Part shown: one piece after another, positions 2,568-57,243 of the stretch
Layout of the letters: every line of letters begins with the position of its first letter
Numbering within the stretch: the first letter of the stretch is position 1
Source: Laccaria trichodermophora
Taxonomy: Eukaryota > Basidiomycota > Agaricomycetes > Agaricales > Hydnangiaceae
Length of the DNA: 64,000 nt
Reading direction: 5' to 3'
Assembly (NCBI GenBank): GCA_018417955.1
Contig: JACTVC010000027.1
Location: forward strand, 496,001-560,000
Notes under the pieces: generated by a model
What the model was told of the DNA's origin: nothing
Database searches by the model: none
What the model saw: the letters and a program-made list of their open reading frames with translations, nothing else
Program-made: the position numbers and the translations under genes

Positions 2568-3743
2568 TCAGGAGTTCTCGTCAGCAACGGTTCGGCGGCG
2601 TTTCCTGACAGCCTCTGAGCTGCCCAAATTCGGGCGTACTCTGCTTCTCGTCTCTGGCCCTTTATCTGGCTCCTCCGCATGTGGAGTTAAATCTGATTGA
2701 ATGATTTGCGTCAGGTGGTCAGCACGGGCCTTGTAGCTGGCTTCTACATTTGACAGCCTTTCGCGAAGCTCTAAAGGACGAAGTTTAGTGAGGTGAAAGA
2801 TTTTGACCAGGGAAAAACAAGTATAGCTCACCTGCCACCTGGTTCTCCAGTTCGACGATCTTGGCGCTCTTTGCGGTCGCATCCTTCTCGACTTTGATTC
2901 TTCTTTTCCGTTCCTTCCGTGCCAGCTCCTTTTCCGCATCCAGCTTTGCTAAAATTTTCCTCACATGACGGGAGTTCTCGACGAGGTTTTGCAATTCCGC
3001 GATTTCCGTTTTCAATCCCTCGTCATTCTCGTCAGCCCCGACCAGATACTTTAACTCCACCAAATTCACGCAAGCCATCGCCTCCTGTGCGGATTTGATG
3101 TCCGCCAACGAGACGACGCAGTGGTTGATTGACGAAAATGCCAGCCGGTCAGCGATCTTTCTATGCTGACTCGGCACTCTTTCTTGGTGAGTCGGTTCAG
3201 TTTCCTCCCTATCTTGATCTTCGTCACATTGCTGAACAACCGGATCAGTTGAACCTTGAGTATCAGCTTCACTCTCGCTAAAATCCCGATCCCGCTCATC
3301 AGCATCATTCTCCTCAGGTTTCACAACAATGGGGACTTTCGAGTTATGGTACGCTAGCAGCAGCGCTGCTGCCTGCTCCCGGGAAATACCAAGGGCATCC
3401 GCCGAATGATCAATAAGGAAAAGTGCGTAATTTGAACACTTTTCCTTCGAGCGTTGGCACCCTTTGCAGCGCGGAGATCGAGCAGTGGTGCACGATTTCT
3501 TTTTGTTAGCACAGTTGGAACATGGCTATAATTGCAACGGTAGCATCGGGCATTATGATGTCTGTCATGAAAAAATGAACGGACCAGCAGTTTATTTTTC
3601 CCCAGCCAGTCATGGCGAATAGTGGCGCTAGAGCCCGCCCTGCTAACCACCTCCGTGAACTTCATCAGCAAGGCTGACTGCGGCGAGAGAGAAGTTCCTG
3701 CACCCGACCGCCCTACTTGAGTTGTGTTTTCGTGCATTTCCAA
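2568..3743 (-). CDS. Cys6-cluster coiled-coil protein (family member 1)
   Basis: I do not recognise a named family, but this is a paralogue of the genes at 43222 and 56356. The model has three exons, 3743-3585, 3525-2832 and 2770-2568, joined by GT-AG introns of 59 and 61 nt that keep the frame and give 351 residues. Near residue 54 lies a cluster spaced C-x2-C-x6-C-x7-C-x2-C-x6-C, starting CSNCANKKKSC. This is the spacing of fungal Zn2Cys6 (Gal4-type) binuclear clusters. It is followed by the stretch FLIDHSADALGISREQAAAL, which matches FLVDYAVHHLNLSESRARAL in the 43222 gene. Then come an acidic Glu/Asp-rich stretch, a predicted coiled coil rich in Glu and Lys, and a basic tail with KRRR. A nuclear DNA-binding or scaffold role is inference. 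The first exon is the least certain: it has no similarity to the exon 1 of its relatives. Confidence 0.68.
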
Positions 3744-4369
3744 GCTGTCGAAAAATAGGTGTGGAGCTTATTGGTCGTGTTCAGCGTTATGAGAGCCTGG
3801 TTGAACTCATGTGTTCTTATATTCATTGGCAGTAACATCGCCTGTCAAAGTGTCTGGGGCCGAATCGAAGAGTACTCTATGTCAAAAGACCCTGACATGT
3901 TACACTTCTGTAAATAGGAAGCTGCACGCTTTTTAAATTTGCGTCCAACGGATGATCTACATATCTTCACGCTATGGATTCGGGAATGCAGGCAAAAGAT
4001 AAAATAGCAAACTTAGATAGCAATGAGAGTTAGAAACCCCCGTGAAGTCGTCATCAGCCATGCACTGGACCACTGGTTGGCATACGAACCGTATCGGCTA
4101 TTCTCCACAGACATCATCAGCCAGAAACACTTCGGAGGTGGTTCAAGACGCATTTTTACATCTTGAGTTATCAAACTGCTAAACTATCCATGTCTTCCCA
4201 AGATTTGCCCATGATACGCTGTGTTTCACAACTTCCATAGCCACACGTGATTCCGGCTCTGAGTCACATGTGACACTGCGAATCTACAGTGAGTATACTG
4301 TACTGTCCAGTCAGCGAGCAATTCATCTCCTCCACGACCAATTCGCAGCTGTCAATCCTAGTGTTCAAT
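3744..4369. other. Intergenic region between divergent genes
   Basis: This 626-bp stretch separates the minus-strand coiled-coil gene from the plus-strand ING gene and presumably holds both promoters. I see no clear TATA box and no open frame of note. Confidence 0.4.
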
Positions 4370-5683
4370 ATGGCCGCCCTTGCGCCCAATGTCGAAGAGG
4401 CTGCCAACATTGCCTCGGAGTTCATCTACAGTGGGTAACCATGGTTCTCCAGTGAAGACCACTTAACGATTTTAGGCATCGACAACCTACCACATGAGGT
4501 ATCTCATCTTCTACAGGAGATCAGACACAGAGAGATGAGGTCACAAGGTAAGAATAACTCTATCAAAGTCTCTATCTTCGCCTCATGTCGTTATAGAACT
4601 TCAGCAGGAAATCGACAAAGACTCAGCGAGATACATTCGCCACTCCTTACGCGCATCATCTTCAGTGCCACCCTCACCAACTTCTCGGGCACCCTCACCG
4701 AAGTCCAGTCTTATACCGGACAAGATAACGTCTTCATACGAGGAGCTCCGGGAGCTCGCGAACGAGAAACGCGATCTTGCCCAACGGCTGATAGATCTCA
4801 TCACAAGGACGCGTGTTCGACTTGACAGCGACCTCAACAAAGTTAGGGTACTTCAAGGCGACGTTGGCGTGGAGTACGTTCCTAGTGGAGGGCTCAAACC
4901 CATATCTGCAACACCACTTTCCAGCTTTGATTCGATGACGACTGCAGGGAGAAACCCTGCGCAAGCCATTAGCGAGAGCCTGCGAAACGCCCTCGCGACT
5001 CCGTTGGTGGAGGTGCGGCAGTCCCCGGGATTGCCTTCCACAACTGCTTCGGCTTCCGTAAGTAGTGCCACTAAGAGTGAGTGTTCTATTCCGGGCGTTT
5101 GCACCTTGGCATTGACAACCTTTTTCAGGGCGCCGTATAACGACCACAACGTCGGTCAAGATTTCTCCGGTTGCTTCTCCCACAAAGCACAGGTCTGCTT
5201 CGCCAACGACGGTGGCGAACTCCTCCCACGCGACTGCACACCAACGGTCGAGGCTCTCTCGCCAAATACATCCACCGGCTGTTGAAGATGTCGACATGGA
5301 CGCGGAGGGTGAAGAGGACGCTGAAGGGGAGGATGCCGAAGCGGAGGACGAGAGGCTCTACTGCTTCTGCCAGAAGCAAAGCTACGGCGATGTGAGTCGT
5401 TCGCCCTACCTCATCATCGCTCCGAAGCTAACATTGATGATGCAGATGATTGCCTGTGACAATGAGGGCGACTGTCCATTCGAATGGGTCAGTTTTGCAT
5501 TCTTAATCAAACGTGTCTTTTTTTTCCTGACGTTGGCATTAGTTCCATCTCACGTGTGTCGGCATGAAGCAGCCGACTCCAGAGAAGTGGTATTGTTCAA
5601 CTTGCGAGCCCAAGATCAAGGCCAAACTCGCGGCCGCTGCCCAGCCCAAGACCAAGAAGGCGACGAAGAAGCGACAATGGTGA
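4370..5683 (+). CDS. ING-family PHD-finger chromatin protein
   Basis: Six exons (4370-4430, 4476-4547, 4597-5076, 5129-5391, 5446-5487, 5543-5683) splice in frame to 352 residues. The N-terminus carries the ING helical domain, with IDNLPHEVSHLLQEI and ELQQEIDKDSARYI. The middle is Ser/Pro-rich and disordered, with a KRRR basic patch at about residue 205 that is created by splicing and may be a nuclear localisation signal. An acidic run precedes a C-terminal PHD finger of C4HC3 type: CFCQ, then ACDNEGDCPFEWFHLTCVG, then WYCSTC. A Lys-rich tail of the kind that binds phosphoinositides in ING proteins follows. In this family the PHD finger reads histone H3 methylated at lysine 4 and the helical domain docks to a histone acetyltransferase or deacetylase complex (Yng1, Yng2 and Pho23 in yeast). 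The sequence does not say which of these it is. The start at 4370 opens the ING domain directly. Confidence 0.93.
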
Positions 5684-31935: not shown

Positions 31936-33102
31936 ATGCCCCAGAGCCAAAGGCCGACAGCAAGTTCTACCTCGGGGACTGCTATTGATGAAGAGGCCAC
32001 ATCTCAGCTGCCGCCGACGTTGGGCAGTGAGCTTCCTGCTACGAGCGTCTCGGCGCCCGTGAAGAGGAGAGCTGGAAGGCCTAGACACGATCCTACCTCA
32101 ATGAGTGCGCCCCCCGAAGGAAATCCACAAACTAACGCGACTCCAACCCCAAAGTCCTCAAGATCTTCAATGGTTCTGAGGGATAGGACTCCCATGGTAA
32201 GAGCCCCCACCCAAGGCCCGAGGGAAGAAGGAGGTTCTGAAGGTGCCACAGACCCAAGGCTGCAGTGGTTTCTGGAAAAAAAAGCCGAGGTAAGCTTCTC
32301 TACACTCTTGTACCTGTTTTTACATATGGGTGCTTATCAGCTATTGTAGGGCCCGTGTCAGAGATGTGGTACGGAGAGTATCGAATGCGTCCCTGGGGAT
32401 GCCTACGCATGTGAACGATGCTCTTCAAAAAAGCAATCGTGCTCCTATATCCTTCCCCATCCGAGGTCAGCATCGCGAAAGACAGATCCCAAAGGTGGGA
32501 AACCCGACTCCGAAGATCCAGCGAATGAAGTAAGTTTTCTAGGTGGATCATAGTTGGACGAATGATGGACGAAGCCCTTCACTTGTCGCAGACGCCACCG
32601 GCCCCAGAAGCAAAGGAGTGGGAAGATTTGAAGGAGGCCAAACAGCAATGGTTCAAGACTGAGTTGGCAAAGGTAAGTATGATAACAGCAATTTGGATCA
32701 TTGGCGCTCACCGAATGCTGCAGGGACCTTGTGGACGATGTGCGGCTGAGAAGGTTCAATGTATCATGCCAAAAGGCGTATACGCCTATAGGTGTCAACG
32801 ATGTATCAAGAGAAAGACCAGATGTTCGTATCTTCTCCCCAATTCGATAATGGAGCTGTATAAAACGCCTCCACAAGCTGACAAACCAGACGAGGAAAGC
32901 AAAAGACCATTCTTTCATATCGGCCATCTGGAGTTGAATGGTCTGAATTTATCTAACAGGAGGAGGATGAGACGCTATCAGAACCTCCCAGTGCACCACC
33001 TCCGCCAAGCTATGAGCTCCAAGAGGCACAAATAAAAAAATATTGAACTTCAAGCCCTCCTCGCGGAGGCTAAAGCTGATCGAGACGATGCACTGCGCAG
33101 AG
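31936..33102 (+). pseudogene. Double-Cys6 coiled-coil gene, truncated, unit 1
   Basis: Copies the first part of the gene at 44966: the Ser/Pro-rich start MPQSQRPTASSTSG, the AT-hook-like KRRAGRPR, the first cluster GPCQRCGTESIEC and the second cluster GPCGRCAAEKVQC. A one-base insertion in a run of A (GCACAAATAAAAAAATATTG) shifts the frame and gives a TGA at 33044-33046. At 33102 the gene is cut and joined to PMT2 exon 4. The remaining product would be about 260 residues with both cysteine clusters but no coiled coil or C-terminal module. Confidence 0.88.
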
Positions 33103-33104
33103 CT

Positions 33105-40364: not shown

Positions 40365-41153
40365 ATGAGATTCGTGACTATCATCTTTGCTTTCGTAGGT
40401 AACGAGACTGAAGGCTACTACATTGCCAACAGGTCGAAATCCGAGTCTCGCTGGTGTGCTACAACGTTACTTTATCAAAATCCTTCCTTCATAGCGCAAT
40501 CAACTCAGGGACCATGCGCCTACAGACCTTGCGACTGGCCTTCGCAAAGTAGGGTGCGCGGGGGTGAAGGGCGTCTACGGTGGGCTCCAAGGAAAATACG
40601 TGCTGCGGGCTACCGACGGAGTCCGTGAGTCCTCCACACAGTTTCTCCCCGATGGTAGAGTCTCACTAGGAAATTTACGCAGACATCAAGGGACTGGCCT
40701 CTGGGCTTCAAGCCAAAGACCTCAAGCTCTACGCTTCTGGCGGTAGTGGAAGCTGGTGGTCCCAGTACGTGGGCGGGCGCACCGTTTGGGGGGATTTGCA
40801 CGCGACCCTCAGTAAGAAACTTGGCGAAGTGGGGGGAGCGAACGTCAAGACCTTGTCGCTCGGAAAAGAGGCCAATAGCTGGGCAATAACTTTTACGAGG
40901 AACGGAACGCACTGCTTTGCGTGGAATAACGTTCCAGCCGGCCTGGCCGAAATTCTGAGGTCGAGAAGCGATGCTGTGGTTTGTTTTTCAATTTTTTAGA
41001 AGGGATGGCATGGGTTCCAACTCACTAATATTCATACAGGACATTGTCTTGAGCCCTTGGAACCACGAGCACTACTTCGTTCTCTTTCGCGATGGAAGTT
41101 ATCGATATAATTTGCCAAAGGCTTGGCTCAACGCCGAGAATAAGATGTTATGA
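40365..41153 (+). CDS. Trp-rich repeat protein, unit 2
   Basis: Sister of the gene at 28896, with MRFVTIIFAFVGNETEGYYI, VKGVYGGLQGKYVLRATDGV, SWWSQYVGGRTVWGDLHATL, the block KTLSLGKEANSWAITFTRNG, and DIVLSPWNHEHYFVLFRDGS, ending at 41153. The C-terminal half is almost identical to unit 1, while the N-terminal half differs more. As in unit 1, the first conserved segment and VKGVYGG are in different frames with no obvious intron to reconcile them, because the region carries a TAG in the expected frame. Either an unusual splice is used or both copies descend from an already broken gene. Confidence 0.52.
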
Positions 41154-41544
41154 GGTACTTGACATTTTAACTTGAATGCGCGATGCTTACTTGCTCTGTC
41201 AGATGTCTTTACATATCTAGGACATCCATTCATGTCAAGCTTTTCATTCGTTCGTTATTCGGTGTAATAGAAACATTCGTTCCTCACGAAAGGATCTAAT
41301 GGTGTGAGGCTTACGACATACAGATCCCTCTCGACTGGCGTTCTCTCTCCCGTTCCTGTCCTGTTTTTTTCCCCTAAAGCTTTGCAATGGCTGCGGATTG
41401 CGTTTGGTGCGGAGTAACCATGTTCTACGGTACCGCAAATCTTACGTTACTAAGGGTCAGCGGGATGTAGCAAGTTTGAAAGCTGTCGTTTAAGCTTTTT
41501 TCATTATGCGATTTACGTTTGAACGCAAATCTGTTCAGCACATA
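41154..41544. other. Spacer left of the transposon
   Basis: Non-coding; the unit 2 counterpart of 29671-30061. It ends in the left copy of the TA target duplication (41543-41544). Confidence 0.6.
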
Positions 41545-41858
41545 CACTAACTGGGCAAAAAGATTGTCTGGTCATTTTTTGGACAAGGTTGGTGCTGTAA
41601 CACAAGAACCAAACATTTTTAGAACTAAGCTCTGGTGTATGGGACATAGCTAAGGAGGTGTAGATTGTACATACCAAGTCTCAGGATGAACAATTGAAAA
41701 CTCAGGATAAGGCAGGGCATTCACTGTGACAACTTCCAAAAATGGGATCTGACAAAATGGGAAATTCTGAATGACTGCAATCTATTGAAAGCAATTCACC
41801 ATTTGAAGAAGAGATATTTTGAACACTGGATCTCCCTGCTATTGTTATAAGCCTCATA
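41545..41858 (+). repeat. Left terminal inverted repeat
   Basis: Matches the reverse complement of 42823-43136 with scattered substitutions and single-base indels, from CACTAACTGGGC to CCCTGCTATTGTTAT. Confidence 0.9.
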
Positions 41859-42822
41859 GAGTTTTTGAGATATAAAATTCTATAGTCTCCCCAAAAAGGT
41901 AAATTTGAATTGATTCCCCTCTTTGGACATTTCCAGTTGCAAATATTGCCCAGGATTGATAGGAAAAGGTATCCATTGGCATAGTATTATACAGATACAT
42001 GACTATTACTATTCCATGATCTGATCTGACCACATTCACAGGAATAAAGCATGCAAAGGCTAATTAAACTTCAACAAACTGTGAAAATCAAGAGACATAT
42101 AGTCAATATGGTTCCCAGAAACTCTGCTTCCAAGGGGTTACAGTCAATATAGGTATTCTGAAATGTCAATGTTAAGTGCATCTACCTATCTCTTGAGCCT
42201 TGGGCACAGATGTTTCTCAAATGGCCCACAAAGCTCACTAAAGCATGACAGAGAGATTTCCAAATCATGCCTAGAAAGGTCTGGGGGTCTCAGATCCTTG
42301 TATAAATAGGACCTCTGTTTATTTTTCTGGGATAGTGTTACTAGGCATGAGAAGTGCCTTGTGAAATATTTTCAGCCCCAATTCACCAAGAAATGTCAAC
42401 AATTGGTCCAGGATGATTGCTCTATGCAAAATGTACTTTTTTTGTGGACTTTTCAAGTTATACCCAGTGCAAATTTATTTTCTATCATGCTATATCTCAG
42501 GCATTGCTTAAAAGACATCCTGAGTTTCCATGGATTAAATCAAAAGGATGGTAGCATTTTTTCTTCTTTCAGAAAAGCAGAACCAATATTGTAGATGCTT
42601 GTTTACTTCCAGAAAAACTCTGAAAATGAGCTTCTACAGACATCATGCAGTGTTCATTTTGACATTTCTACATACCTTTTGTATTATACACACTACAAAC
42701 ATTGATGGGGAGTTATTTTACCTCAATCCAATAAATATATTGGGTGAAAAATACATAAAATGGAGAACAAGTTCAAATTTATCTTTTAGAGGAGGATATA
42801 AAATTTTCTAGCCTAGGGACAT

Positions 42823-43136
42823 TATGAAGCTCATAACAATAGCAGGGAGACCCAGTGTTCAAAATATCTCTTCTTCAAGTTGTGAATTGCTTTCAGTAGA
42901 TTGCAGTCATTCAGAATTTCCCAATTTGTTACATCCCATTTTTGGCACTTGTCACAGTCAATTCCCTGCCTTACCCTGAGTTTTCAATTGTTCATCCCCA
43001 GACTTGGTATGTACAATCTACACCATTTGAGCTATGTCCCATACACCAGAGATTAGTTCTTAAAATGTTTGGCTCTTGTGTTACAGCACCAACTTTGTTC
43101 AAAAAATGACCAGACAATCTTTTTGCCCAGTTAGTG
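42823..43136 (-). repeat. Right terminal inverted repeat
   Basis: Inverted counterpart of 41545-41858. The two arms have drifted apart at many positions, so the insertion is not brand new. Confidence 0.9.
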
Positions 43137-43221
43137 TATACTGTACCGCGTCGTCAATTGCAACGTTGTCTCCCAGACCTGCGCTCTCGTCTTTCAAGCA
43201 CCCTCAGGCGCTGCGACCGAA

Positions 43222-44657
43222 ATGATGGAAACGGAAGACCCTATCGTGAATGAACAACGGAATATTCTGCAATGTCATAGGTCCATCCTTCCCCAGCAAA
43301 GCGTTGTGAGTCCCAGTCCCAGTGGCAACCGCGAGTCCGAGTCGGACTCGGACCCAGACTCTTCTCAACAAAGCGATGCGTGCTCGGACTCAGACGATTT
43401 GGTCGCAGACTTTTTAAGTTGCCTGCACAAGGGAAGGATGGATCGGAACGCTCAGCAGCTCTGGCTCAAAAAAAATCTCCAGGCGAGTTTATCCTTGGAT
43501 TCAGCTTATTGAAATCACTCACGGAGTCGGGTGCACTTATCCAGAGCTGCTCAAACTGCTTGGTTATTGGCGCTCTGTGTACAACGGATAAGAATATCGG
43601 AGCGAAGTGCGAGCGTTGTCGAGATTCGCACGCATATTGTTCCCAATTCACAGAGTTCCTCGTCGACTACGCCGTCCATCATCTCAATTTGTCGGAGAGC
43701 AGGGCCCGGGCCCTGTTTTTGGATTATGGGACTGGAGGATTGAAGCGACGTGAACGCAAGAAGGCCCCTCCGCCAGACCCGGAGACTGAATCTGACCATT
43801 CGGATGTAGATGCGGCGAAGAATATAGAGATGAAAGTGATGGTCCAAAAGACTGTAGAACTCCGTGTTCAAGTCAAGACGTTGGAGCAACAAGCACAGGA
43901 TTTCCGACTGGAAAATATCAAGTGCAAGAAGGAAATTTCAAATGTCCGGGAAGAATGCAAAAATGCGAAGAGGGAAAAGGAGAGGGCTGAGCAAAGATAT
44001 CAAAAGGAAATACAGGACCTGCATGCGGAGAAAGCGCACATGGCAATGAAGGAGGGGGAGCTCAGAAACGAGCTCTATAAGATGCATGTGGAGCATGGCC
44101 GCTATGTGAGGGAAACGGAGAAGGAGAAATGGATGCTAGGGAGGGAAAATCGGGTGACGGAAGAAAAGATGTCTGCGGAGGTCAAGCAGAGGGAAGCAGA
44201 GCTCACGAAACTCAGGACGGAAAACGAACGTTTTCAGAAAGTCATTGATGAGATCTCCGCTCTGAAAGAAGAGCTGAAAGGTCGGTGCAGTAAATATTTT
44301 TTCCATTGTTTATGCTCACCAACTTGGCTTTCGTTAGAGGTGCGCCAAAGCCGGTCTGACGAGCGATACGACATGGTCCGCTTCCAACTTCGCGTCGACC
44401 AGGTAGTCGCCATGCTTCAATGTACTGCCTTGACGTCGCCGGAAGCGCGAGAAGACGCCAAGGATGGCCAGATTGTAAGAAAAAGTTTAGAGGAGTTGAA
44501 GAAGATCACTCAGGAGTGTGCGATGTTGCGGATGTCCCGTGGAGAGGATGTTTTTGAGATGGGGAGAAACTTGCTGAAACTTACGCGAAAAATCGACGCG
44601 GAGGCGACCAACGAGAGTGATTTGGAAACTAAGAGGCGGCGGTTGACCCGAGATTAG
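43222..44657 (+). CDS. Cys6 coiled-coil protein, unit 2 (intact)
   Basis: Three exons (43222-43482, 43545-44280, 44338-44657) give 438 residues; I know no function. Exon 1 is acidic and Ser-rich (ESESDSDPDSSQQSDACSDS). The first intron has GC-AG borders (CAG then GCGAGT), shared with unit 1. Exon 2 opens with the cluster SCSNCLVIGALC, spaced C-x2-C-x6-C-x9-C-x2-C-x6-C, the Zn2Cys6 spacing. Next come FLVDYAVHHLNLSESRARAL and a basic patch KRRERKKAP. A coiled coil of about 200 residues follows, including ELRNELYKMHVEHGRYVRE. The C-terminal module (MVRFQLRVDQVVAML, then LEELKKITQECAMLR) resembles the ends of the proteins at 44966, 54540 and 56356. It ends in the basic stretch KRRRLTRD. A nuclear dimeric DNA-binding or scaffold protein is plausible, but it lacks the usual fungal transcription-factor middle domain. 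The second intron is 57 nt with no stop, so its retention would add 19 residues. Confidence 0.8.
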
Positions 44658-44965
44658 AAGAACTTGAAGTAAAGAGCGGACGAGTAGTGACGATTTTAGA
44701 GTAGATTAAGCTTATCTTGACACATTGAAATCTTGCGCCCAGTTGCGGCTGGATTGTGCTCGATATAAGTGCAGGCGCGATCACGTGCATTCGTTGATGC
44801 AATAGAGATTGTTGATTTCAATTTGTTTTGAGAATTATTGACCACACCACCGTCCTCACTCCCTTGGACATCGCCTCCAAGTCGCGCCCGACGACCTCAA
44901 GCATCCCTACAGGTATCTCCTCGGCCGACGATTAACGCCCGACACCTTTTTGCACGTACAACGCA
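44658..44965. other. Spacer between the two Cys6 genes, unit 2
   Basis: Non-coding, similar to 31590-31935. It is conserved most strongly in the last 100 bases before the start codon. Confidence 0.55.
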
Positions 44966-46773
44966 ATGCCCCAGAGCCAAAGGCCGACAGCAAGTTCTAC
45001 CTCGGGGACTGCTGTTGATGAAGAGGCCACATCTCAGCTGCCGCCGACGTTGGGCAGTGAGCTTCCTGCTACGAGCGTCTCGGCGCCCGTGAAGAGGAGA
45101 GCTGGAAGGCCTAGAAACGATCCTACCTCAATGAGTGCGCCGCCCGAGGGCAATCCACAAACTAACGCGACTCCAACCCCAAAGTCCTCAAGATCTTCAA
45201 TGGTTTTGAGGGATAGGACTCCCATGGTAAGAGCCCCCACCCAAGGCCCGAGGGAAGAAGGAGGTTCAGAAGGTGCCACAGACCCAAGGCTGCAGTGGTT
45301 TCTGGAAAAAAAAGCCGAGGTAAGCTTCTCTACACTGTTGTACCTGTTTTTACAGAGGGGTGCTCATTAGCTATTGTAGGGCCCGTGTCAGAGATGTGGT
45401 ACGGAGAGTATCGAATGCGTCCCTGGGGATGCCTACGCATGTGAACGATGCTCTTCAAAAAAGCAATCGTGCTCCTATATCCTTCCCCATCCGAGGGCAG
45501 CATCGCGAAAGACAGATCCCAAAGGTGGGAAACCCGACTCCAAAGATCCAGCGAATGAAGTAAGTTTTCTAGGTAGATTATAGTTGGACGAAGCGCCCTT
45601 CACTTGTCACAGACGCCGCCGGTCCCAGAAGCAAAGGAGTGGGAAGATTTGAAGGAGGCCAAACAGCAGTGGTTCAAGACTGAGTTGGCAAAGGTAAGTA
45701 TGATCAATGCTATTTGGATCATTGGCGCTCACCGAATGCTGCAGGGACCTTGCGCAAGATGTGCTGCCGAGAAGGTTCAATGCATCATGCCAAAAGGCAT
45801 ATACGCCTATAGGTGTCAACGATGTATCAAGAGAAAGACCAGATGTTCGTATCTTCTCCCCAATTCGATAATGGAGCTGTACAAAACACCTCCTCAAGCT
45901 GATGAACCGGACGAGGTAAGCAAACGACCATGCTTTCATATCGGCCAACCGGAGTTGAATGGTCTGACTTCTACCTAACAGGAGGAGGATGAGACGCTAT
46001 CAGAACCTCCCAGCGCACCACCTCCGCCAAGCTCTGAGCTCAAAGAGGCACAAATTAAAATCATTGAACTTCAAGCCCTGCTCGCGGAGGCTAAAGCTGA
46101 TCGAGACGATGCACTGCGCAGAGGTGCTGAGCTGGAGCACGAAGCCAGGTGCAAAGATGCGGTCATCCGGAAGATAGAGGGGGAGAAGAAGGCCGAAGCA
46201 GATTCAAAACGGCGGGGGCTTAAGCGGGCGGAGGATCTTTACCTGACGGAGAAGGAAGCGAAGGAGCGGTTGGAGGAGGCGGTGGAGAAGCTCACGAAGG
46301 AGGTCGAGAAACTTCAGGAGGCAACAGAGTCAAACGACTCGGAGAGAGAGACGAGGGATAAGGAATTTGTGGAGTTGAAGGAGAAGCTTGAGGTTGCTGA
46401 TGGTCTGGTGACTGGTAGGTTTGAGTTGAGTTTTCTTCGGTCCATCCGGACTAACGGCACTGTCTTTTGCGTAGACCTCCGAGAGGACCTCGACGAGAGC
46501 ATGCTCTCCCTCCAAGTCCGCATCGACGACGAGGTGTATAAGCTCCGCATGATAGCGGGGACCCTCAAAGATTCCGAAGAGGGCCGCCGAATCCAAGGAA
46601 GCGTGCAGAAACTCGAGAGGGTCGTCGAGGCTTGCAAGGCTCGTCGGATCCTGGGTTCTTCTATAGATCAGAAGCCGTTCTTTGCCAAAAAGAGAGAGCT
46701 GGAGGAGTATGGGGGTGAGGTGATAGAAGTGGACGGAGATGGGCGAAAGTCAAAGGTCCAACGTGTGTCGTAG
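44966..46773 (+). CDS. Double-Cys6 coiled-coil protein, unit 2 (intact)
   Basis: Six exons (44966-45319, 45380-45559, 45613-45693, 45745-45915, 45982-46414, 46475-46773) give 505 residues. A disordered start includes KRRAGRPR, an AT-hook-like motif. Exon 2 encodes one cysteine cluster (GPCQRCGTESIEC, spacing x2-x6-x7-x2-x6). Exon 4 encodes a second (GPCARCAAEKVQC, spacing x2-x6-x10-x2-x6), followed by basic residues and CSYLLPNS. Both clusters begin with GPC exactly at an exon start, which points to duplication of an exon module. After a Pro-rich linker comes a coiled coil of about 140 residues (IIELQALLAEAKADRDDALR). The C-terminal module is SMLSLQVRIDDEVYKLRMI with LERVVEACKARR. Function unknown; its two Zn2Cys6-like clusters suggest metal binding. 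The copy in unit 1 is truncated. Confidence 0.8.
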
Positions 46774-48544
46774 ACGTCAAGCGCCTTGCGATGAGGGGGG
46801 GGGGGGTGTATAGATGGGACAGTTTCGCATCCAGCTCGCGCTTATTTATACCTTGAACTCTGATTCTTGCGGGGGTGATGGGTTGCTTTCGTTTCTTGTA
46901 ATCAATATATTTCGTACTTCTTGCTATCTATACTTCAGACCAATGTACTACTTTTTCTTGCTCCTATGGCTCTTGACATCATACCACGCCTCTCGTTAGT
47001 ATACCCGTATCGTTATTGTATAAGTCATGTTCCTGCTGCCGGATCCTATAAGGATTGGCAGTACCCCCATAATGGGTGGTATTTCGAAAACAAAGTCGAA
47101 CCCTGAAACGGAGTCGACCGCGGAACGCAAGTTATTGACTGGGTTCATCACGCTCCAATCTCCAGCCACGTGGGGGTCTTGGCCTCCATAGCTGGACCAA
47201 AGTAGCCTTATACTACTCATCAATGGTCGAGCTAGGTGAAACGGATGGTGGGGTTCGCCATTGAACGGCCATTCATTCTACCTGAGCGTGGTATGGCACT
47301 AGGACTTCATGAACGAGATGGGGCTTAACGACGAATGACAAATAGGAAGAGAACGGACAAGGAATCTGCCTTTTTATAGGAAAGACTTGCTTTGGAGATG
47401 TGCCGTTTGTTGTCGCTTCGTTGGAGAGTTCCTCCAACACGGAAACTAGGGACAAGGCTGTAGAAGGCCCAGCATGATGCTGAGGGAAAACATCGTCGTC
47501 GAAGCCTCGAACGTCCCTGTGGGGGAAGGGGAGGGCGAAAAGCAGGATAGAAAGGCAACTGTAAAGAGGAGGAGATCTGCGGGAGAAGTGAGGTAGCTTG
47601 CCAAAGTGGAAATTACAATGCTTACACATGGATGGAGACTCCTTGAACATCACGATAGGTCGCGTCAGTATCATAAGGGATGGCGAAACCAGGGCGATCC
47701 TGAGTTTCTCCAAGACATGAAGCTTTTCGAGCAACCAATGCTTCTCATGGCCCGTTTCTGCCCCAGGCTTTTCGGCTTTCCCTTGCAAAAGGACGGAAAT
47801 AAGCGGCGTGAAAACGAAGCAGGCTGCTATAAGCCCCGGTGGATCCATCGCCAGCCAACGACGGGAGCATGCCCATTCACGAAGGGGTCCAAAAGGGATC
47901 ATGCTATCGCTGAACTTCTAACAGCGACATCGAGCAAAGAGCGCGACAGTCGGGAGCTAATTAGAAGTCGAGATCATGGAATGAAAGTAACGATGACCTC
48001 ACCGCGCCAACTCCCAGTCATCTCTTGGGGATCTTCACCAGTGGCAAGGTTCAACTGTAACCCTCAGATACTACATACCTGACCTCTGAGAGGTAGACGA
48101 CGAAAAAATGACTGCAGGATTCTTGAACGACCAAACACCTAGCCGCCGAAGGGGTAATATCGCCACTTCTAAAAAAAGATGAGTTGAGGAAAGGATTTGT
48201 GGTTACATAAAACATTTTTTACAACGAGACGGTTGCGATTGAGTACATCACGTGACTATACACCAGGTAAACACTATAAAAGACTACAAAAGTCACTACA
48301 AAACATTGCCTCCGACCACCCACATCTTGACCCACATACTACCGACGAAGAATTAGGTCTTCCAAACTTCCCTCCTTTGCCAGTGCATAAGAAGGTGACG
48401 TTGAAGCTGTCCAGAAAGACATCGACCACGCGAATTTGGAATTGGAGTGAATGAACGAGGAGATCGTCCGCACACTTGTTACTAACTAAAGCAAAACACC
48501 CGAAAAGTTAACGTCAAGCGATCAAGTCTTTTCTTGCACTGCAG
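46774..48544. other. Gene-poor stretch
   Basis: Two overlapping frames on opposite strands (47902-47273 minus, 209 codons; 47606-48082 plus, 158 codons) are the longest. Neither has a recognisable motif or credible introns. A run of ten or more G lies just after the double-Cys6 gene, near 46797. Confidence 0.4.
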
Positions 48545-49189
48545 AAACAGAATTTTCCACCTTCCAGTGGTCATTGGCCTCCGACAGATGTCTTGCTAAA
48601 GATCTTCTCGATCGTTTCGCCCTTGGTTTCACCTGACTGTGTCACTATCTCGGCGACTTCAGGTTTTTCCTGGCAGCTTGCCTACATCTGTAAACTGTGG
48701 AGAGAAACGGCGTGGTTATTCGTTACACTTGGCTTTTGCGAAAAACAATTAACCAAGCGATGGATCAGGCAAGCGTGCAAACTCCTCAAGATTTGCGTTG
48801 CGCGCTCCAGAAAATACCCACTGTCAATTCAATTGTATGGGAACACAAAACATACGAAAGGAACCGGGAATATTGAAGGTTGCTTTGCAATCATTGAAAA
48901 GTTATTTCAGTTTGGCCAGCTGCAGACGCCGACGCATTTTCTCCTCGAACTTTCAATCTTGGGGCGGCTTTCTCCATATATTAATCTCACCCAATTTGGC
49001 GTCATTGGAACTTATGGCGCCTCCAGGCCTCCCGAGTCACCTGTTCAGACCCCGACCGAAGGATGGCCACGAATCACACGTATGAGATCACCAGGTTTCG
49101 GTATTGATTCAGCCGATTTTTCCGGAACTCTCCTGATACAAATTTCTTTGGGAAGTTCGCTTGTTATTATATCACTCCGAACCTTCTGA
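48545..49189 (+). pseudogene. F-box-like gene remnant
   Basis: An open frame without a start codon opens after a possible acceptor (CACTGCAG) and reads WPPTDVLLKIFSIVSPLVSP, then QLAYICKLWRETAWLFVTLG. The pattern 'P-x-D/E-V/I-L-x-x-I-F' followed by 'V/I-C-x-x-W-R-x-x-A' is that of F-box domains in the large Agaricomycete F-box families, which link substrates to SCF ubiquitin ligases. Later text (GNTKHTKGTGNIEGCF) has no recognised repeat. Downstream, pieces that could continue the protein are in shifting frames up to about 49900. I read it as a decayed gene; an intact gene with introns I missed is possible. Confidence 0.35.
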
Positions 49190-52100
49190 CCCTTTTTTAA
49201 TCACAAAAAAGGCATACTGTGGATTTGACAATTTCTTGCGATAGTAGTATCTTTTGCAGTGCTCATGTTGCTCTATTACTTATTTCAGTGTATCTGAGCA
49301 CCTTTCAACAAGAGGCCTTCTCTCAATTATGGGTTCACTCCACATGTCAAGTATCTTGACTTTTTCACTGGTCAAAGATCGCCAATGTGGGAACACAAGC
49401 CGGATCTCACCCTTCTTCTCCTTCTTCAACCCTTTAATTTCGGTGATTGAACGTCTGTCGACGTATACGAAGATGATTGTCGAGACCAGGGTAAACTTCC
49501 TCAAGGGGCACGGTTCTTCTCCCGCGACGGGAGGAAGTTCCGAAATTTCAACCTTCACCTGTGTGGATAGAACTTGAACACAGAACAGCAATTGTCCGGA
49601 CTTATTCAAGAATTTGGTAGATTGAAGGTGGATTTTCACGGCGACCGCTATCCTAACGCCTTGTACTAGCATCTTCCATTCTTTCAGAGACGAGTGCCAA
49701 CCTTAGAAACGCTCAGTTTCGCATCAACACTGGCAGTAATTTGGAGCAGTTTTATATCAATATCGAGATATCGTATCTATCAAAAAGTTGTCTTTATCCG
49801 AAAGAGAGAAAACAACCTGATGGAAACGAATAAGAGGGAAAGGAAGGAAGGAAAACATCAAAACCTACGGAAAAGAAGGCGCCCGGACGAAAGTAGAAAT
49901 TCCATGTAGCCGAATCCTGTATTCAATTCCCCGTAGCCGTTTCAAAACGCGCCCCAGCTCCCATTGTAACGAAATTCAAGCGGCATAGGCGCAACCGCTG
50001 AAAAAAGAAGTATCAACTGCTCCATAAAAGGGCCGATCATCATGACACGCGGCCACAAGCTCCTGGGTGCCTGGCAGTGGAAATGCACTGGATTACTTGA
50101 AAGTGCGGCTGCCTGATCGTGACCGCATGAAGGTTTTCTTGACCATGGCGGTAGCGGCGTAGTTTGAGCATGGAACGGTGACACAAGTTGCCCGAGACGA
50201 CCACGAGAATCATTGAGCATCCAAAGACCACCAGGCCCATCCAGATTTATAAAGGACCTCGGCGTAGGCGTCGACGCAGTGAACGTCAAAATGGGCAGGG
50301 CTAATGGCATAATCTTGAAACGTTGTAAATAAAAATATCTTTGTGATGACTGGGGAGAAGGTGCAGCTGACATCATGTCTTTCTTTCCTCTGCAGCCAAT
50401 GCCCAGACTCAGAGGATGCCCAACTTGGCGGTGACGAATGTGATTAAGGTGATCCCGTCGTTTAAGCCTGGGACAATGCTGAAAGTGGGAAGGAGTTGAC
50501 TGGCCGCCAGCTCTCGCGTGTACCATGTGCCAACCCAGTCGCCAATCCGAGTCAATTCCCCGACATGTGCAGAACGCCGATGTAGATATTGTCTGCCAAA
50601 GCGATCCAAGGTTGTTTTTTATTGAGAACACCTTGCACTTTGCCATTGTTCCTGATTATGCAGAGAATACGGTGAGCCTAATGTAAATAAAAAACCAAGC
50701 CAACCTGGCCCTCTGCGCCACCTTAACAGAGCCTCAAGGGACTTGTCGCTCTGGAGCACTGTCTTATCGGAAATACAACGACGGCAGCCAAGGACGTTAT
50801 TAATTCTTGGAAAAAGGTCAGTCAATGGAAGGAAGTCAGGATTCACAGGAAGGCCGATTCACCTTAACAAACTGGCTTAAAACGCTAGCGGAGAAGAGGG
50901 AAAATGACAACGACAACCAGCACGAAACCATATCCTTCTCCCGCCAGATACCAATGTTTAGCTCATCTATTGGGGTCCTCAAGTCGCGAGCACTCGTGCC
51001 TGTGGTCTCAATTGAGTAGTTGGGGAGGTGAAAGTAGTCGACTTCAAAAGTATTGAATGAAGAGCCTCAGGTTAAGGGTCCTGTTGTAGGTTGTTGGGCC
51101 GACTTGTAGGCGTTTCAAGATGGCTGCGGAAGATAGCGAGAGGACGACGTAGGCAATGGGAAGACGTTGGGAAGACGGAGAAACAGCCATTGGTTCCCAA
51201 GACCATCATGCTGATGACAACACTTTGAGATGTCTTGCGCCGTAACACCCATAGCTCTCAGGAGGTCTCATCATCAATGATGAGAATATTTTCTGCTCAC
51301 AAGCATATCAAAATGGGGCTGAGCGGGTCGAAATGAAGCAGATAATTCACAAAAAATCAGAGCGGAATCGAGTAGTGATGAGTTTTTTGTGAGTGCAAGG
51401 AGACATTTATCAATCGTCCAGAATATCTTTCCGACCGAGAGACGAGGCCCCAGGGATGTCGGTCGGCAGAGGAACTCTGTAGTCATCAATGCCTCCCGGG
51501 AACTAGCGACCACGGACCAATTAATTTGGTTCCGAACTTGCTTCCAAGTCGGTGTAGACAGCCCAGGGCAAATGGACTACCCTTACAAGAGGGGGAACCA
51601 TATGTCCTAGTGATCTATTTCGGCGGGAATTGTAGGAGGGTGAGATAGTTTTAATCAAGTGCGAGAAAGGGGGTGAGTAAAACTTTGCCCCATCACCTTC
51701 CGTTTGACTGGAAGCACAAGAGTGAAAAATCATAAACCAGCAACTCCGACAGTCTCGTAGGAGATCGACGATTGCAGCCGGCAGTGCCCACGCCCAATAT
51801 CCTTTTGGAGGCTTCGCGCCGACAGTCCAAACCTCAATCTCGGCGTGAACCGTATTAAGCCGGCGCCAGGGTGGGTTCGCGAAACTCCACCATATCATGT
51901 CTTAATCTATTCCCAGCGCTAACAGTGAAGTTTGCGCTGAATATTCAGAAGAACGTAAACTGACGTGGGTCCAAGGTACGGGAGAAAAGACTTTACAAGG
52001 TGGTGAAGACTCGATGTATTCCGGGATGTGAGGTACGCATGTGGTGGCCGCACTCGGTTGTAGCCATTGACGGTGATGGGCATGGCTGGGCATGACCCAT

Positions 52101-54539
52101 GCTGAAACGGCTACGTCGCGATGACCTAGCAGTCGGGATACGCGATGCGGGGCAAGCAGGGAGGCATCAAAGTCTGGGCGTGTAATCCCTTTGAGGAAAT
52201 GGTGCGTCAAGAAATTTTTGAGTAATAAAACGCGGAGATGTGCAACGAGCGATATCAACGGGGGCTGGATTGATTGGAACCAATCGTCCTACGCATGGAT
52301 CTGAATGAGTCTAGTCAGGTCGCGGACAAGGCCGTATTAGTACTGTCTCCGGTGGAAGGCAGCTGCATAAGAAAACATACCGACTGGAAGGCGATATCGA
52401 TGACATGATCCAAAGGCGGCCAGTGGGAAAAAGATAATTATATTTTTACGTTGGAATCCATGACACCACAGCTTTTTGCATCTCGGATTCCTTTATGCTG
52501 CGGTCTACTAATAATCAGTGATGTAACGTTTCTGTGAACAAAGGGAGAAGGTCCTAACAGATGACAGGCTCTCACTGTTAATCGTCCCGCGACTCCGCCG
52601 GAAGCCGATCACCCGAGTTCATATGCGCCCACTGGGTGGAATGGGCTGGGCCTTTTCATGGATGAGTTGAGCCGCGTTCACGTTGATCTTAATGGCGCCG
52701 ATTGAGAGAGTTGTCAAAATACTCTGATCGCAAGCACTGGAAAGGAGGTCCGTGCCAGTGACGGCCGGCGTCCCTGTGAGTGTGTATGGTACGGGCCGTG
52801 TTGCCACAGGATCGCCAAAAAGACGCCAGTCATGAGGAGAAGTAGCACCAGCCTACCTCGAGCGCTCGTCCCTCAGAAATTGAATATTTCAGCCCGAACG
52901 AGGCGGACTTTACGCAGGCTGAGGTGCTTTCCGTTGACTGTCTTGTCTTGTTCATGACGATAGAGGGCGACACGGATGACGAGGCCATCCTTGGTATTTC
53001 TTTGTCGTTGGAGTTTCCGAGGAGAGGTTGAGCTTTTTTTTTAGCTTGCGCCTGACGTAATCCAGTGTGACACAAAACCCGTCACAAAAGAACGCTCAAT
53101 GCCGTTTCAAAACTTCACCTCTCATAGGCCTTACAAAACCTATAAAATGCTACGAGTGTTCCTTGCATTGTGCTGTGGCTGTGGACCACAAATATATAGA
53201 ATTCATCAACCCTCATAAAATCCAATGAATGGAGCTTTCAAAACTTGAGGGGTCTTGCAATTGTGGTAATCCAACTTTTTCTGGTTTTGTTGAACAAAAC
53301 CAGAAATGTACTCATTGTATATACTTAGTATGTGCTTGAATATCTTCTATGAGTTTGAGAAAAACTAATGCAACAAGATTGTTTTGTGTCGTTGACCCGG
53401 TTGTGTCAACACTTGATGAGTAGCGACGGGCAACATCGACAAAAATCATTTTCGCCATTAGCCGCGAAGCATCACGATGATGTGCAAAAGTAAGTATGCT
53501 ATCAACGGATCATTACATATTTGCGCTTGTTGTGTGCGATGCCGAAGATAGCGGATGACAAGTTGGTGACGCCGAAACGTCAACGCCTCAACTCTTCTGG
53601 AAAGAAACATCTAGATGCAGACTAGGATCATATTGGCTCGTAATAAAAAAGTGTGCAGAACAATGCGATTTATTCGCTACACAGTTATAAAAATTAGAGT
53701 AATCTTACAACGTCCGTCCACAATTCGGTTAACTTTCTTCGCCAGGGTTCTGGCACAAAAATTAGAACGTTTTCGACCAGACGTTTCACAACATTTGTAT
53801 GTACCATGTGTGTTGCCAATAGTAGCCTAAAATTGCAATCGATTGATTACAATCCACCTGGGCGGTTTTTGTGCTTAGTGTCCGACTTTGGTTGTTACTG
53901 ACAGGAGTTGTTGCAATCTTCAACTCATTGATTCATGATGGTGAGGGCTTGCGGGGAACGCACCAGAAGCTCAGCGACGAAGTGCGCGATTAGATTTTTA
54001 CGACATTCCGTGAACCCTTGCCCCAATGCCCCCACATTTCGGAGCTTTCCCCTTCCTCTCAACTTCCGCGCCCCAAAGATTCTCGTTCCCGACAAAGAAT
54101 ACTCTGGCTGCAGTGTAAAATAAAATTGTATACATAAAATCGTCTAAATAATATTCTTTTGTATGATGACTTATTATCCACAGGGTCACCAATTAGATGA
54201 AATGCAGGGTGCAACAAAACCTTCGGAAATTAACCGAGACCTAAGAGCTAGGATAACGTACAGGCCAATCATCGTCGGTGTGTTGTCGCTTGGAAAACTC
54301 AGGGAATGGTCATAAAGCGGCGTATCTCTGGTCAGGTGCTATCAGGAACAACCGAATGAGGAAAGAACACTCTTTGACTGTGTGGGACGCTTCTCAAAGC
54401 ACCGCCTGCCTGATCACCCCGTTCCCACTCTGTCACGTCGTCTCGGCATTTTCCTTCGACATCGCTTTCCTTTAAATATACCCCATGAATCTTCTGACCT
54501 GCCTGCCACCCAGTGACCAACTTGATCTGTCTCATTATT
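49190..54539. other. Long gene-poor stretch
   Basis: No recognised genes in over 5 kb. The longest frame is on the minus strand (50646-49942, 234 codons) and has no domain I know. Frames of 118-125 codons lie at 51521-52258 (minus). The part around 53100-53900 is AT-rich and contains a perfect palindrome at 53278. The look is of decayed coding or transposon sequence, but I could not identify a source. Confidence 0.45.
53278..53306. repeat. Perfect 14-bp inverted repeat
   Basis: TTTCTGGTTTTGTT, one base G, then AACAAAACCAGAAA. The arms match at all 14 positions. It lies in AT-rich non-coding sequence. Confidence 0.85.
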
Positions 54540-55780
54540 ATGCCTCGCGCACACAAGACATACGATGCCATCCCAAAGTTACCCATCGAATATCTACAGT
54601 TCCAAGTCGACGAAAAATCGGAACCGATGCTCCTCCAGATATTTCAAGAAAGGGGAACGGATCGAGAATTAATTTGTTGTGATCTATGCCACCAACACCT
54701 TCCTCTGACGAGCAAGAGATCTCTTGTGACATTGACAAAGCACAGGGGGAAGGGCGAATGCACGAAATTAATTGATAGGAAGGAAAAGGAAGCGACACGG
54801 GAAGAGGCTGTAGCGGAGGCGGAGAAGGTTTTTGCAGAATTATTTCCGACTACAGGTAGGAGTCAGAGCCAATGGAACCCACATGAGGGTAGCCCCAACG
54901 TCGTCGAGAGTCCGGTGGAAGCCAAGGTGGGTATGAGCGATTTTTGTGAACGAACAGGTGCGTCTGACTATTACAGGTGGAGCCATGCGAGCCCTCCGAT
55001 CTGCGTCAACCTGATCCAGTGACACCGGAAAACGATGCGCGCCCACCAGAATCTGAGTCGGGCGTCGTACAACCCGCTCAAGATCCCGTCGACAATATTT
55101 CAGAATTAAGAGCACTCGTCGAGAAGGCTACCTCAGAACGGGATGAAGGACTAGCTACGATCAGGACGCTGGAGAGGTGGTACCGTCGAAGTTGCGAGAA
55201 GGAGAAGAAGGCGGAGAGCGCCAGGGAAGCAGCTGAGAGAGATTTATACCGGCTGCGCGTCGAGATTACGCATGAATACCAAAAGAGGATAAGTGCAGAA
55301 GCTGGGGTGTCGAACCTACGCGTCGACGTAGAGAGGTTGCAAAGGGACTTGGCGGTCCAGAAATCGGCTTATGAGAAAGCCACGGAGATCAAGGATAAAG
55401 AAATTAAAGGTCGTTTCAGCTTCATGGATACCAGAGTCTCGCGACCACTCACAACTTATTCGACAGAACTGGAAGAAAACCTTGCCTCCATTGAAGATAA
55501 AAATATGCTGTTTTGTCAATTACGCGTCGACGCCGAGGTCGACAAACTAGAGGAACTTTTGTCTTCTGAGCACTTGAAGGACTCCGATCAGAAAGTTCGA
55601 TTGATGCTTGAAGAAAGCCACCGCGGCCTGCGGCAGATTGTGCGCGAGTGCAAGGCGGCACGACCTCCACGATCAAATATCATTCAAAGGATCCTGCCTA
55701 TAACGAAGCGAGAAATAAGTGTGGACGAGGAGGACGAAGAAGGGCCTACGAGGGGCGCTAAGGCTGCGCGCGTTGCGTAA
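54540..55780 (+). CDS. Coiled-coil family protein with a different Zn-finger-like front end
   Basis: Three exons (54540-54926, 54977-55409, 55467-55780) give 377 residues. The start is MPRAHKTYDAIPKLPIEYLQ. Instead of the six-cysteine cluster it has a CCDLC ... H ... HRGKGEC pattern at about residues 44-70, a C2HC-type zinc-binding candidate. A middle linker rich in Glu and Pro leads to a coiled coil (ERWYRRSCEKEKKAESAREA) and then the C-terminal module: MLFCQLRVDAEVDKLEELLS, HLKDSDQKVRLMLEESHRGL, VRECKAARPP and a basic end. This module is clearly homologous to the end of the next gene (56356) and more distantly to those at 43222 and 44966. It therefore looks like a swap of N-terminal domains onto a common tail. 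Function unknown. Confidence 0.78.
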
Positions 55781-56355
55781 ACTTGGTTGAGTAGATTGAG
55801 TGCGTGGTATCTTTAGTAGATGCGTCCTTCCTATTGAACGGAAGTTTTTCCTGCCAGGCCTATTTATTAGTATCACCGCGATAATCAGATATCCGAGGTG
55901 AATCGGATAAGCCTTGAGTTGGGTGCACAGTCTTGTGATGTCGCTTAACCTGATGCGGTGCGCAAACTTGGAATGTGGTCTTGGGTGAAGCTTGAATTTG
56001 CCACTCCGCGAAATGGTGACAAGAGCCCGATGCGCCTTTCAACTGACCTTACGTCATCTGCAATGTACTATTTAGTATTTGCACATGTTATCTGCTTTCA
56101 GTCTTTGCCCTTCTGCTGCCTTCTGAAGAAATCCTTTTTGTTCTAACGATCGCACGGACGGTACTTCTGAACAAGTAATTGCTTTCTCTCTCATTTTTTT
56201 TGATAATAACGACTGAGGGTATCTCACTGAGTGGCGCCACAAAGAACACTCTGTCGCGACCCTGTACCCCGTTGTTGGGAATCCATGCCACCCTGTACCA
56301 ATACTAATTCGGTGTTCCTCTTGGTCAACAACCTTCAGGAAGCGTCCTCGTTCAA
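55781..56355. other. Spacer between two coiled-coil genes
   Basis: Non-coding 575 bp. The true 5' end of the next gene may lie here if it has an exon upstream of 56356. Confidence 0.4.
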
Positions 56356-57243
56356 ATGAAAGAGGTAAGTTCCTGCTTTCATTTGCAAAGGATCAATACT
56401 GAATTGCGGATACAGAAGTTAGCATGTTCCCGCTGCATTTCTAGCGGTGCCCAATGCCAGAGTACGACCGCCACTCGCAAGAGTTGCGACCGCTGCACAA
56501 GGCAAAAAATGTCCTGCTCCCTGGTCAAAGCCCCGCCGTCACATCAATCTACGCTTGAAGGTTTCAACCGCTCGGGCGCGACACAAACCGAGGTCTCTAC
56601 ATCAAGCCAGCAGCACAGTCGGAACGTTGAAAGAGAGATGGGTGGGAGTGCTAACGAGAGGTCGACGACAGAGTGGGAGATGCTGATAAAGGAGCAGGAG
56701 ACGCTGACGAAGGAGCGGGAGACACTGATGAAGGAGCGCAAGGCAAAGCAGAGAGCTACCGAAGAGGTATCGCAGCTGCGCCATGAGCTGACTGCCCTAC
56801 GTCGAAACATCGACGCACGGTATGTCAAGAAGGAGATGCATGAGCAACAAACTGCGCAACTACAAGGCAGGATCCAAAGTACGTTGTCAAATTTTCAAAT
56901 TCGCCGAACGCTTGAGCCTCTCGCAGAGCTGCAGGAAGACCTCTTGACAGAGGAGAGAAATACGTTGTCCTTACAGTTACGCATCGACTGCGAGGTCGAT
57001 AAGCTTGACGACATCCTCTCTTCAGACTATTTGAAAGAATCAGATCATCAAGTCCAACAAATGGTAAAAGAGAGTCACAGCGGGCTCAAAAAGATCCTCT
57101 GCGAGATAAAGGCAGCACGCCCATCCGATTCACGCGTCATGCAAAACGTTTTGTCAATCACAAAACGAGGATTCCAGCCAGATGAAGGTGGAGAAGATGA
57201 TGGAGATGTGATTCGGGTGAATAAGCATCAAAGAATTGGGTAG
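56356..57243 (+). CDS. Cys6 coiled-coil protein (right-hand member)
   Basis: Exons 56356-56364, 56416-56878 and 56927-57243 give 262 residues, starting MKEKLACSRC; a further upstream exon is possible. The cysteine cluster is at the very N-terminus: CSRCISSGAQC with spacing C-x2-C-x6-C-x9-C-x2-C-x6-C, followed by SLVKAPP. A Ser-rich linker is followed by heptad-like repeats of KEQETLTKERETLMKERK and a coiled coil. The C-terminal module NTLSLQLRIDCEVDKLDDIL, YLKESDHQVQQMVKESHSGL and IKAARPSDSR closely parallels the gene at 54540. This is the most compact family member and probably shows the minimal architecture: cluster, coil, tail module. Function unknown. Confidence 0.76.
   Translation: MKEVSSCFHLQRINTELRIQKLACSRCISSGAQCQSTTATRKSCDRCTRQKMSCSLVKAPPSHQSTLEGFNRSGATQTEVSTSSQQHSRNVEREMGGSANERSTTEWEMLIKEQETLTKERETLMKERKAKQRATEEVSQLRHELTALRRNIDARYVKKEMHEQQTAQLQGRIQSTLSNFQIRRTLEPLAELQEDLLTEERNTLSLQLRIDCEVDKLDDILSSDYLKESDHQVQQMVKESHSGLKKILCEIKAARPSDSRVMQNVLSITKRGFQPDEGGEDDGDVIRVNKHQRIG

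What the first reader, a model, noticed from the sequence alone, without database searches (positions are those of the whole stretch)
2568..57243. Seven-member family pairing Zn2Cys6-spaced cysteine clusters with a coiled coil and a shared tail module
Genes at 2568 (minus), 30149, 31936, 43222, 44966 and 56356 encode C-x2-C-x6-C-x7-10-C-x2-C-x6-C clusters, the spacing of Gal4-type binuclear zinc clusters, followed (where not truncated) by a coiled coil. The gene at 54540 has another finger-like start. Those at 43222, 44966, 54540 and 56356 end in a common module (pattern Q-L/V-R-V/I-D-x-E-V-x-K-L, then about 40 residues, then E-C/I-K-A-x-R). Seven members in 64 kb, with no known transcription-factor middle domain, make this the best candidate for an undescribed system.
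Basis: partly seen in the sequence, partly recalled or inferred. Interest (0 to 1): 0.8.

Follow-up and report, generated by a model that had tools for sequence, protein, structure and literature searches.

The report
Laccaria zinc-cluster coiled-coil gene cluster
A mushroom of the genus Laccaria, or a very close relative, carries a small local family of genes that look like DNA-binding zinc-cluster proteins joined to a long coiled coil, four of them with a shared end piece, and in most of these clusters the two halves look exchanged compared with the usual Gal4 type.

Summary
The genome is Laccaria-like. The window holds five intact genes (2567-3737 minus, 43222, 44966, 54540, 56356) and two broken copies from a local duplication: 30149 has an in-frame stop, 31936 is cut off at 33104. 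Six carry the stated cysteine clusters (two clusters each in 44966 and 31936); 54540 has a C2HC-like finger. The tail is real in 43222, 44966, 54540 and 56356, not detected in the minus-strand gene, and not found elsewhere in the 59-Mb genome with the three tails searched. Two Laccaria amethystina orthologues are already labelled Zn(2)-C6 proteins, so this is a divergent branch of a known class. New here: 9 of 10 family clusters match the Gal4-type profile best with halves exchanged, and the usual DNA-reading basic residue sits in the second half in 7 of 8 clusters, against the first half in 14 of 14 ordinary clusters of this genome. Three of four further relatives do not show this. Best reading: nuclear, coiled-coil-paired DNA binders without an activation region, diversified by duplication and exchange of the N-terminal exon. 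DNA binding, pairing, location and function are inferred; the structure models are too poor at the clusters to test the metal site.

The parts
2567..3737 (-). gA: 3 exons (3737-3585, 3525-2832, 2770-2567), 349 aa, one C6 cluster, FLxD segment, coil, C-terminal RKRRR; no detectable tail module
   Evidence: intact paralogue on C45
30149..31590 (+). g30149: broken duplicate of g43222 with an in-frame TAG in the coil
31936..33104 (+). g31936: truncated duplicate of g44966 with both C6 clusters, cut where another duplicated block begins at 33105
43222..44657 (+). g43222: exons 43222-43482, 43545-44280, 44338-44657; 438 aa; C6 cluster, FLxD segment, coil, tail, C-terminal KRRRL; first intron GC-AG
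44966..46773 (+). g44966: six exons, 505 aa, two C6 clusters each after a WF..GPC stretch, AT-hook-like KRRAGRPR, coil, tail
   Evidence: L. amethystina K443DRAFT_197282 82% identical over 100%
54540..55780 (+). g54540: exons 54540-54926, 54977-55409, 55467-55780; 377 aa; C2HC-like finger instead of a C6 cluster, coil, tail
56356..57243 (+). g56356: exons 56356-56364, 56416-56878, 56927-57243; 262 aa; C6 cluster, coil, tail
   Evidence: L. amethystina K443DRAFT_197186 begins with the same MKEKLACSRC

Best explanation
A locally duplicated set of divergent Zn2Cys6 (Gal4-class) nuclear proteins, known so far only from Laccaria. Each is made of exon modules: a metal-binding N-terminal part (one C6 cluster, two C6 clusters, or a C2HC finger), a long coiled-coil exon, and in four genes a helical-hairpin tail exon. 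Likely mechanism: coil and tail pair two chains, perhaps with choice among family members; C-terminal basic motifs take them to the nucleus; the zinc clusters contact DNA, the second half of the cluster carrying the reading lysine. Lacking a middle or activation region they would work as DNA-bound dimers that recruit partners, compete or repress, not as complete Gal4-type activators. Shown: gene anatomy, tail homology in four genes, shared intron plan, conservation in Laccaria, purifying selection on the intact gA pair. Inferred: zinc and DNA binding, pairing, location, regulatory role.
For: Cluster spacing. All 6 PDB sequences matched by the cluster profile at E up to 10 are zinc-cluster regulators (Pho7, C27B12.11c, LAC9, PPR1, GAL4, LEU3), though the best E is only 0.15. 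Pfam Zn_clus is passed by P0007 and by 6 of 10 isolated native cluster peptides. Long helix and hairpin. Tail homology. Phase-0 intron just before 7 of 7 modelled clusters and phase-1 intron before the last exon in 7 of 7 modelled genes. Orthologues with cysteines kept. gA against its C45 paralogue dN/dS 0.43, p 5e-5. Basic C-terminal motifs and the AT-hook-like stretch are seen in the sequence.
Against: In full length, 0 of 5 window proteins reach the Zn_clus cut-off (gA 16.9, 44966 20.3, 56356 16.4 bits; 43222 and 54540 not listed). First halves lack the basic loop of ordinary clusters. A single-sequence PDB search gave an unrelated top hit (MTCP1, E 0.5). Models do not resolve the clusters and Foldseek gave no match at E 0.001. 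The functional steps have no direct evidence.
Confidence: 0.5

Rival explanations
1. The cysteine clusters are protein- or RNA-contacting zinc modules on scaffold-like coiled-coil proteins; they do not read DNA.
For: First halves lack the basic residues of ordinary clusters: K/R at C2+4 in 2 of 8 and at C2+6 in 0 of 8, against 14 of 14 for both positions in controls. In 43222 neither half is first-half-like. The coil dominates the proteins. The FLxD segment after the cluster is strongly kept in the 43222/30149 pair (dN/dS 0.09, 30 codons).
Against: Second halves have K/R at C2+4 in 7 of 8. 44966 has an AT-hook-like GRPR stretch, kept in the L. amethystina orthologue. C-terminal basic motifs suggest the nucleus (sequence).
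Confidence: 0.27
2. They are accessory or domesticated products of mobile elements, comparable to the CxC cysteine-cluster proteins linked to KDZ or Copia elements in mushrooms.
For: Rapid duplication and decay around these genes. A second copy of the 54540 finger on the same contig has a stop inside. CxC5/CxC6 clusters are multiplied with Copia elements in Pleurotus (PMC7641404, passages).
Against: No CxC Pfam family was listed for the window models (E up to 1) or for five orthologues (E up to 10). Low copy number of the tail. I did not survey the window systematically for transposase genes.
Confidence: 0.15

Closest known systems
Gal4-type Zn2Cys6 binuclear cluster proteins (Pfam PF00172, Zn_clus)
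   Same: Six cysteines with the class spacing; coiled coil after the cluster; weak but consistent profile similarity.
   Different: Basic reading position in the second half in 7 of 8 clusters, no fungal transcription-factor middle domain found, two clusters in one chain in 44966, a tail unknown to Pfam.
Laccaria amethystina K443DRAFT_197282 and K443DRAFT_197186 (UniRef label Zn(2)-C6 fungal-type)
   Same: Orthologues of 44966 (82% identity, full length) and 56356, cysteines kept.
   Different: No function known; neither locus tag occurs in the paper library.
CxC1-CxC7 cysteine-cluster families near KDZ elements
   Same: Cysteine clusters multiplied in mushroom genomes (PMC7641404, passages).
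   Different: No CxC Pfam family was listed for these proteins.

Membership tests
Zn2Cys6 (PF00172) | C-x2-C-x6-C-x5-12-C-x2-C-x6-8-C (spacing range recalled) | tested here: met
   six of the seven genes named; not 54540
Zn2Cys6 (PF00172) | Score over the Pfam cut-off of 21 bits | tested here: inconclusive
   Full length: 0 of 5 window proteins, P0007 yes, P0006 and P0011 no. Isolated native cluster peptides: 6 of 10.
Zn2Cys6 (PF00172) | Basic reading loop in the first half | tested here: not met
   K/R at C2+4: 2 of 8 first halves and 7 of 8 second halves; ordinary clusters of the same genome 14 of 14 and 0 of 10
Zn2Cys6 (PF00172) | Two zinc ions held by six cysteines; binding to CGG-like DNA | not testable with these tools
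   Models of low confidence at the clusters
Complete Gal4-type activators | Fungal transcription-factor middle domain | tested here: not met
   None listed for five window proteins at E up to 1 or five orthologues at E up to 10
CxC cysteine-cluster families (KDZ-linked) | Match to a CxC Pfam family | tested here: not met
   None listed
CxC cysteine-cluster families (KDZ-linked) | A KDZ or Copia element beside the gene | not tested
   No systematic transposase search was made

The most novel reading that the evidence does not exclude
These clusters are a half-exchanged (circularly permuted or functionally reversed) form of the Zn2Cys6 domain: the DNA-reading half comes second, on the coiled-coil side, so that reading and pairing are coupled differently from Gal4; and a Laccaria set of such chains pairs combinatorially through a shared tail while exchanging its DNA-binding exons.
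Probability: 0.18. Interest if true: 0.72.

Novelty: new variant of a known kind. Interest (0 to 1): 0.42.

Why it matters
Zn2Cys6 proteins are among the commonest transcription factors of fungi, and in ordinary ones the basic, base-reading half comes first. A branch in which the basic half is second, with exchangeable N-terminal exons and a common end module, would show how a pseudo-symmetric DNA-binding domain can be rebuilt. It also shows that a Pfam Zn_clus scan of this genome (60 matches) lists none of these window genes. Purified cluster domains would make the question directly testable.

Tried and rejected
Rejected: seven independent members (segmental duplication). Rejected: a tail in gA, although its last intron has the same phase. 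Rejected: CxC membership.

Led nowhere: Foldseek on both models, no match at E 0.001. Paper searches for a described family: (listings; one search found no paper). Locus tags: no paper; 358 papers hold two or more of four terms, 15 were listed, none of the 15 contains 'circular permutation'. (Pho7) only listed papers.

Limits: the tool says that own-genome counts are lower bounds. Other fungal genomes could not be searched. The three protein-database searches went to 43222, 44966 and 54540+56356; gA was not searched there, and the tails of gA and 54540 were not searched in the genome on their own.

Rows dropped: of 20 fetched regions with ordinary Zn_clus hits 14 gave a readable cluster; 4 of the 14 have a longer second half and served for first halves only. 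One search used 5 of the 6 read without splicing. The wider relatives C15, C22 and C44 were not in the 8 clusters; their second halves were scored (1 of 4 first-half-like).
Full report
Where it is. The window is G000:C20:496001-560000 of a genome of 59.0 Mb in 77 contigs. The gene at 44966 has a full-length orthologue in Laccaria amethystina, K443DRAFT_197282, 82% identical, so the organism is a Laccaria or a very close relative (Agaricales, Hydnangiaceae). The species was not determined.

The genes. Models were built by hand from splice signals: gA (2567-3737 minus, 3 exons, 349 aa), g43222 (3 exons, 438 aa, GC-AG first intron), g44966 (6 exons, 505 aa), g54540 (3 exons, 377 aa), g56356 (3 exons, 262 aa). 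The models of 44966 and 56356 agree with the two named L. amethystina proteins. P0001, P0006, P0009 and P0010 read across intron positions without the introns, while P0008, P0013 and P0014 read into introns. If that database translates contigs without splicing, the first four come from transcripts; this is an inference.

Not seven independent members. Blocks 26687-30065 and 30060-33102 recur at 38206-41548 and 43137-46123 with 88% and 86% identity. g30149 is the copy of g43222 and has an in-frame TAG in the coil. g31936 is the copy of g44966 and ends at 33104, where a copy of block 19138-22543 begins; that block holds a MIR domain.

The clusters. The spacing is as stated. g44966 has two clusters, each after a W-F-...-G-P-C stretch. 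A phase-0 intron lies just before the cluster in 7 of 7 modelled clusters (gA, its C45 paralogue, 30149, 43222, 44966a, 44966b, 56356), and a phase-1 intron before the last exon in 7 of 7 modelled genes (the same genes and 54540). This plan suggests common descent with exchange of the N-terminal part.

The tail. Whole-genome searches at E up to 10 with the tails of 56356, 44966 and 43222 return only copies in this window. E is 2.6e-22 for 56356-54540, 4e-4 for 44966-54540 and 0.2 for 44966-56356; 43222 finds only its own duplicate. Profile comparison links the 54540/56356 tails with 44966 (E 1.8e-8, prob 95) and 43222 (E 1.2e-4, prob 56); 44966-43222 directly gives only prob 7.8, and gA 0.2-0.4. 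All 16 comparisons with neighbouring coil stretches give prob 1.02 or less. In the model of P0007 the tail is the end of a long helix and a second helix (H279-435, H440-461). No Pfam or NCBIfam family matched above its cut-off.

Spread in the genome. Searches with the clusters of 43222 and gA find an intact gA paralogue at C45:2181656 (79% identity to gA; model) and weak matches at C15:34380, C15:39148, C44:2092, C22:632356 and C12:4499437 (E 0.002 to 0.13). The C22 type has further strong copies or pieces on C22, C44, C9, C24 and C34, and does not find the window genes, so its kinship to them is tentative. A Zn_clus search gave 60 matches, 37 marked over the cut-off, none in this window. In the protein database there were 5, 2 and 9 relatives of 43222, 44966 and 54540/56356. 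Only two carry an organism name, both L. amethystina; their contigs have the same length (109289), which suggests one contig.

Selection. gA against its C45 paralogue: dS 0.22, dN 0.09, ratio 0.43, Fisher p 5e-5. g44966 against the truncated copy (262 codons): 0.13, p 1.5e-6. g43222 against its broken copy: 0.30, p 1e-13. In the last pair dS is 0.65 in the cluster (33 codons) and 1.42 in the FLxD segment (30 codons) against 0.26-0.38 elsewhere, and dS is only 0.10 in the neighbouring 44966/31936 pair. Patchy gene conversion or exon exchange is one explanation (inference).

The half-exchange. In ordinary Gal4-type domains the basic reading loop lies in the first C-x2-C-x6-C half (established knowledge, recalled). 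I scored native clusters and the same peptides with halves exchanged against Pfam Zn_clus. Of 10 family clusters (gA, its C45 paralogue, 43222, 44966a, 44966b, 56356, C12 and three L. amethystina orthologous clusters), 9 matched best out of register in native order; exchanged, 10 of 10 gave one in-register stretch; total bits rose in 8 and fell in 2 (44966a and its orthologue). Five ordinary clusters of the same genome matched in register natively, 5 of 5, and lost 8.4 to 19.9 bits when exchanged; 2 of these 5 still matched in register after exchange. A position matrix from 14 first and 10 second halves of ordinary clusters sorted 10 of 10 left-out pairs correctly and put the family's second half ahead by more than 10 bits in 7 of 8 clusters (44966b 0.8); 0 of 5000 composition shuffles reached the mean. 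K/R at C2+4: controls 14 of 14 and 0 of 10 in first and second halves, family 2 of 8 and 7 of 8.

Against the half-exchange. The eight clusters are not independent (gA with its paralogue, 43222 with 30149), and the within-family contrast is modest (Fisher p 0.04). At C2+6 only 4 of 8 second halves are basic, against 14 of 14 in control first halves. In full-length gA and 44966 the best Pfam stretch is in register. The second half of 43222 is not first-half-like in absolute terms. Among wider relatives only 1 of 4 second halves is first-half-like. It is a property of these subfamilies, not of the wider group, and whether it is a true circular permutation or drift of a pseudo-symmetric domain cannot be told here.

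Mechanism. The likeliest reading is a set of nuclear DNA-binding dimers without an activation region. Support: the cluster class, the long coil, C-terminal basic motifs (KRRRL in 43222, RKRRR in gA), and an AT-hook-like KRRAGRPR in 44966, KRKPGRPR in the orthologue (sequence). Every functional step is inferred.

Literature. I read passages of PMC5604158 (Laccaria bicolor transcription factors) and PMC7641404 (CxC5/CxC6) and saw other papers only in listings. I found no description of this family; the library lacks most subscription journals.

Noticed in passing
window 41545-43136: An insert with 368-bp inverted ends (89% alike), starting CACTAAC and ending GTTAGTG, with TA on both sides; the empty site is in the left copy near 30063. 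It ends about 85 bp before the ATG of g43222.
   Followed up: partly
window 18368-22543 and 33105-37600: Duplicated pieces of a protein O-mannosyltransferase gene (PMT E 3.6e-40, MIR E 6e-30 in the left copy); one copy begins exactly where g31936 is cut off.
   Followed up: partly
window 1-3922; L036; L063: The gA region is a segmental duplicate of C45 (88-91% over most of its length); a further partial match on C45 holds a relic of the gA end with stops.
   Followed up: partly
window 30360-30659 against its copy near 43437: Identity drops to 75% around the first intron, cluster and FLxD segment, inside a duplication that is mostly 87-98% alike, with raised dS.
   Followed up: partly
L035/L040 (C20:694923-695132 minus): Second copy of the C-x2-C-x17-H-x5-C finger of g54540 (37% identity, E 3.6e-8) with one stop in the frame.
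   Followed up: partly
window 3357-3435 (minus) and 43641-43730: A conserved segment after the cluster in gA and g43222 (FLI/VD..., then L-x-I/L-S-x4-A-x-A-L), resembling segments after the C15 and C22 clusters; two short helices in the model.
   Followed up: no
L018-L025: Eight weak matches to the second cluster of 44966 (E 0.012-0.025), six of them in open frames of 364 or 385 aa and the others 320 and 354 aa, on C1, C2, C8, C18, C4, C15 and C23: possibly a repeated gene family.
   Followed up: no
window 48512-49186: Open frame of 225 aa with only a weak F-box-like match (E 1.2, below cut-off).
   Followed up: no
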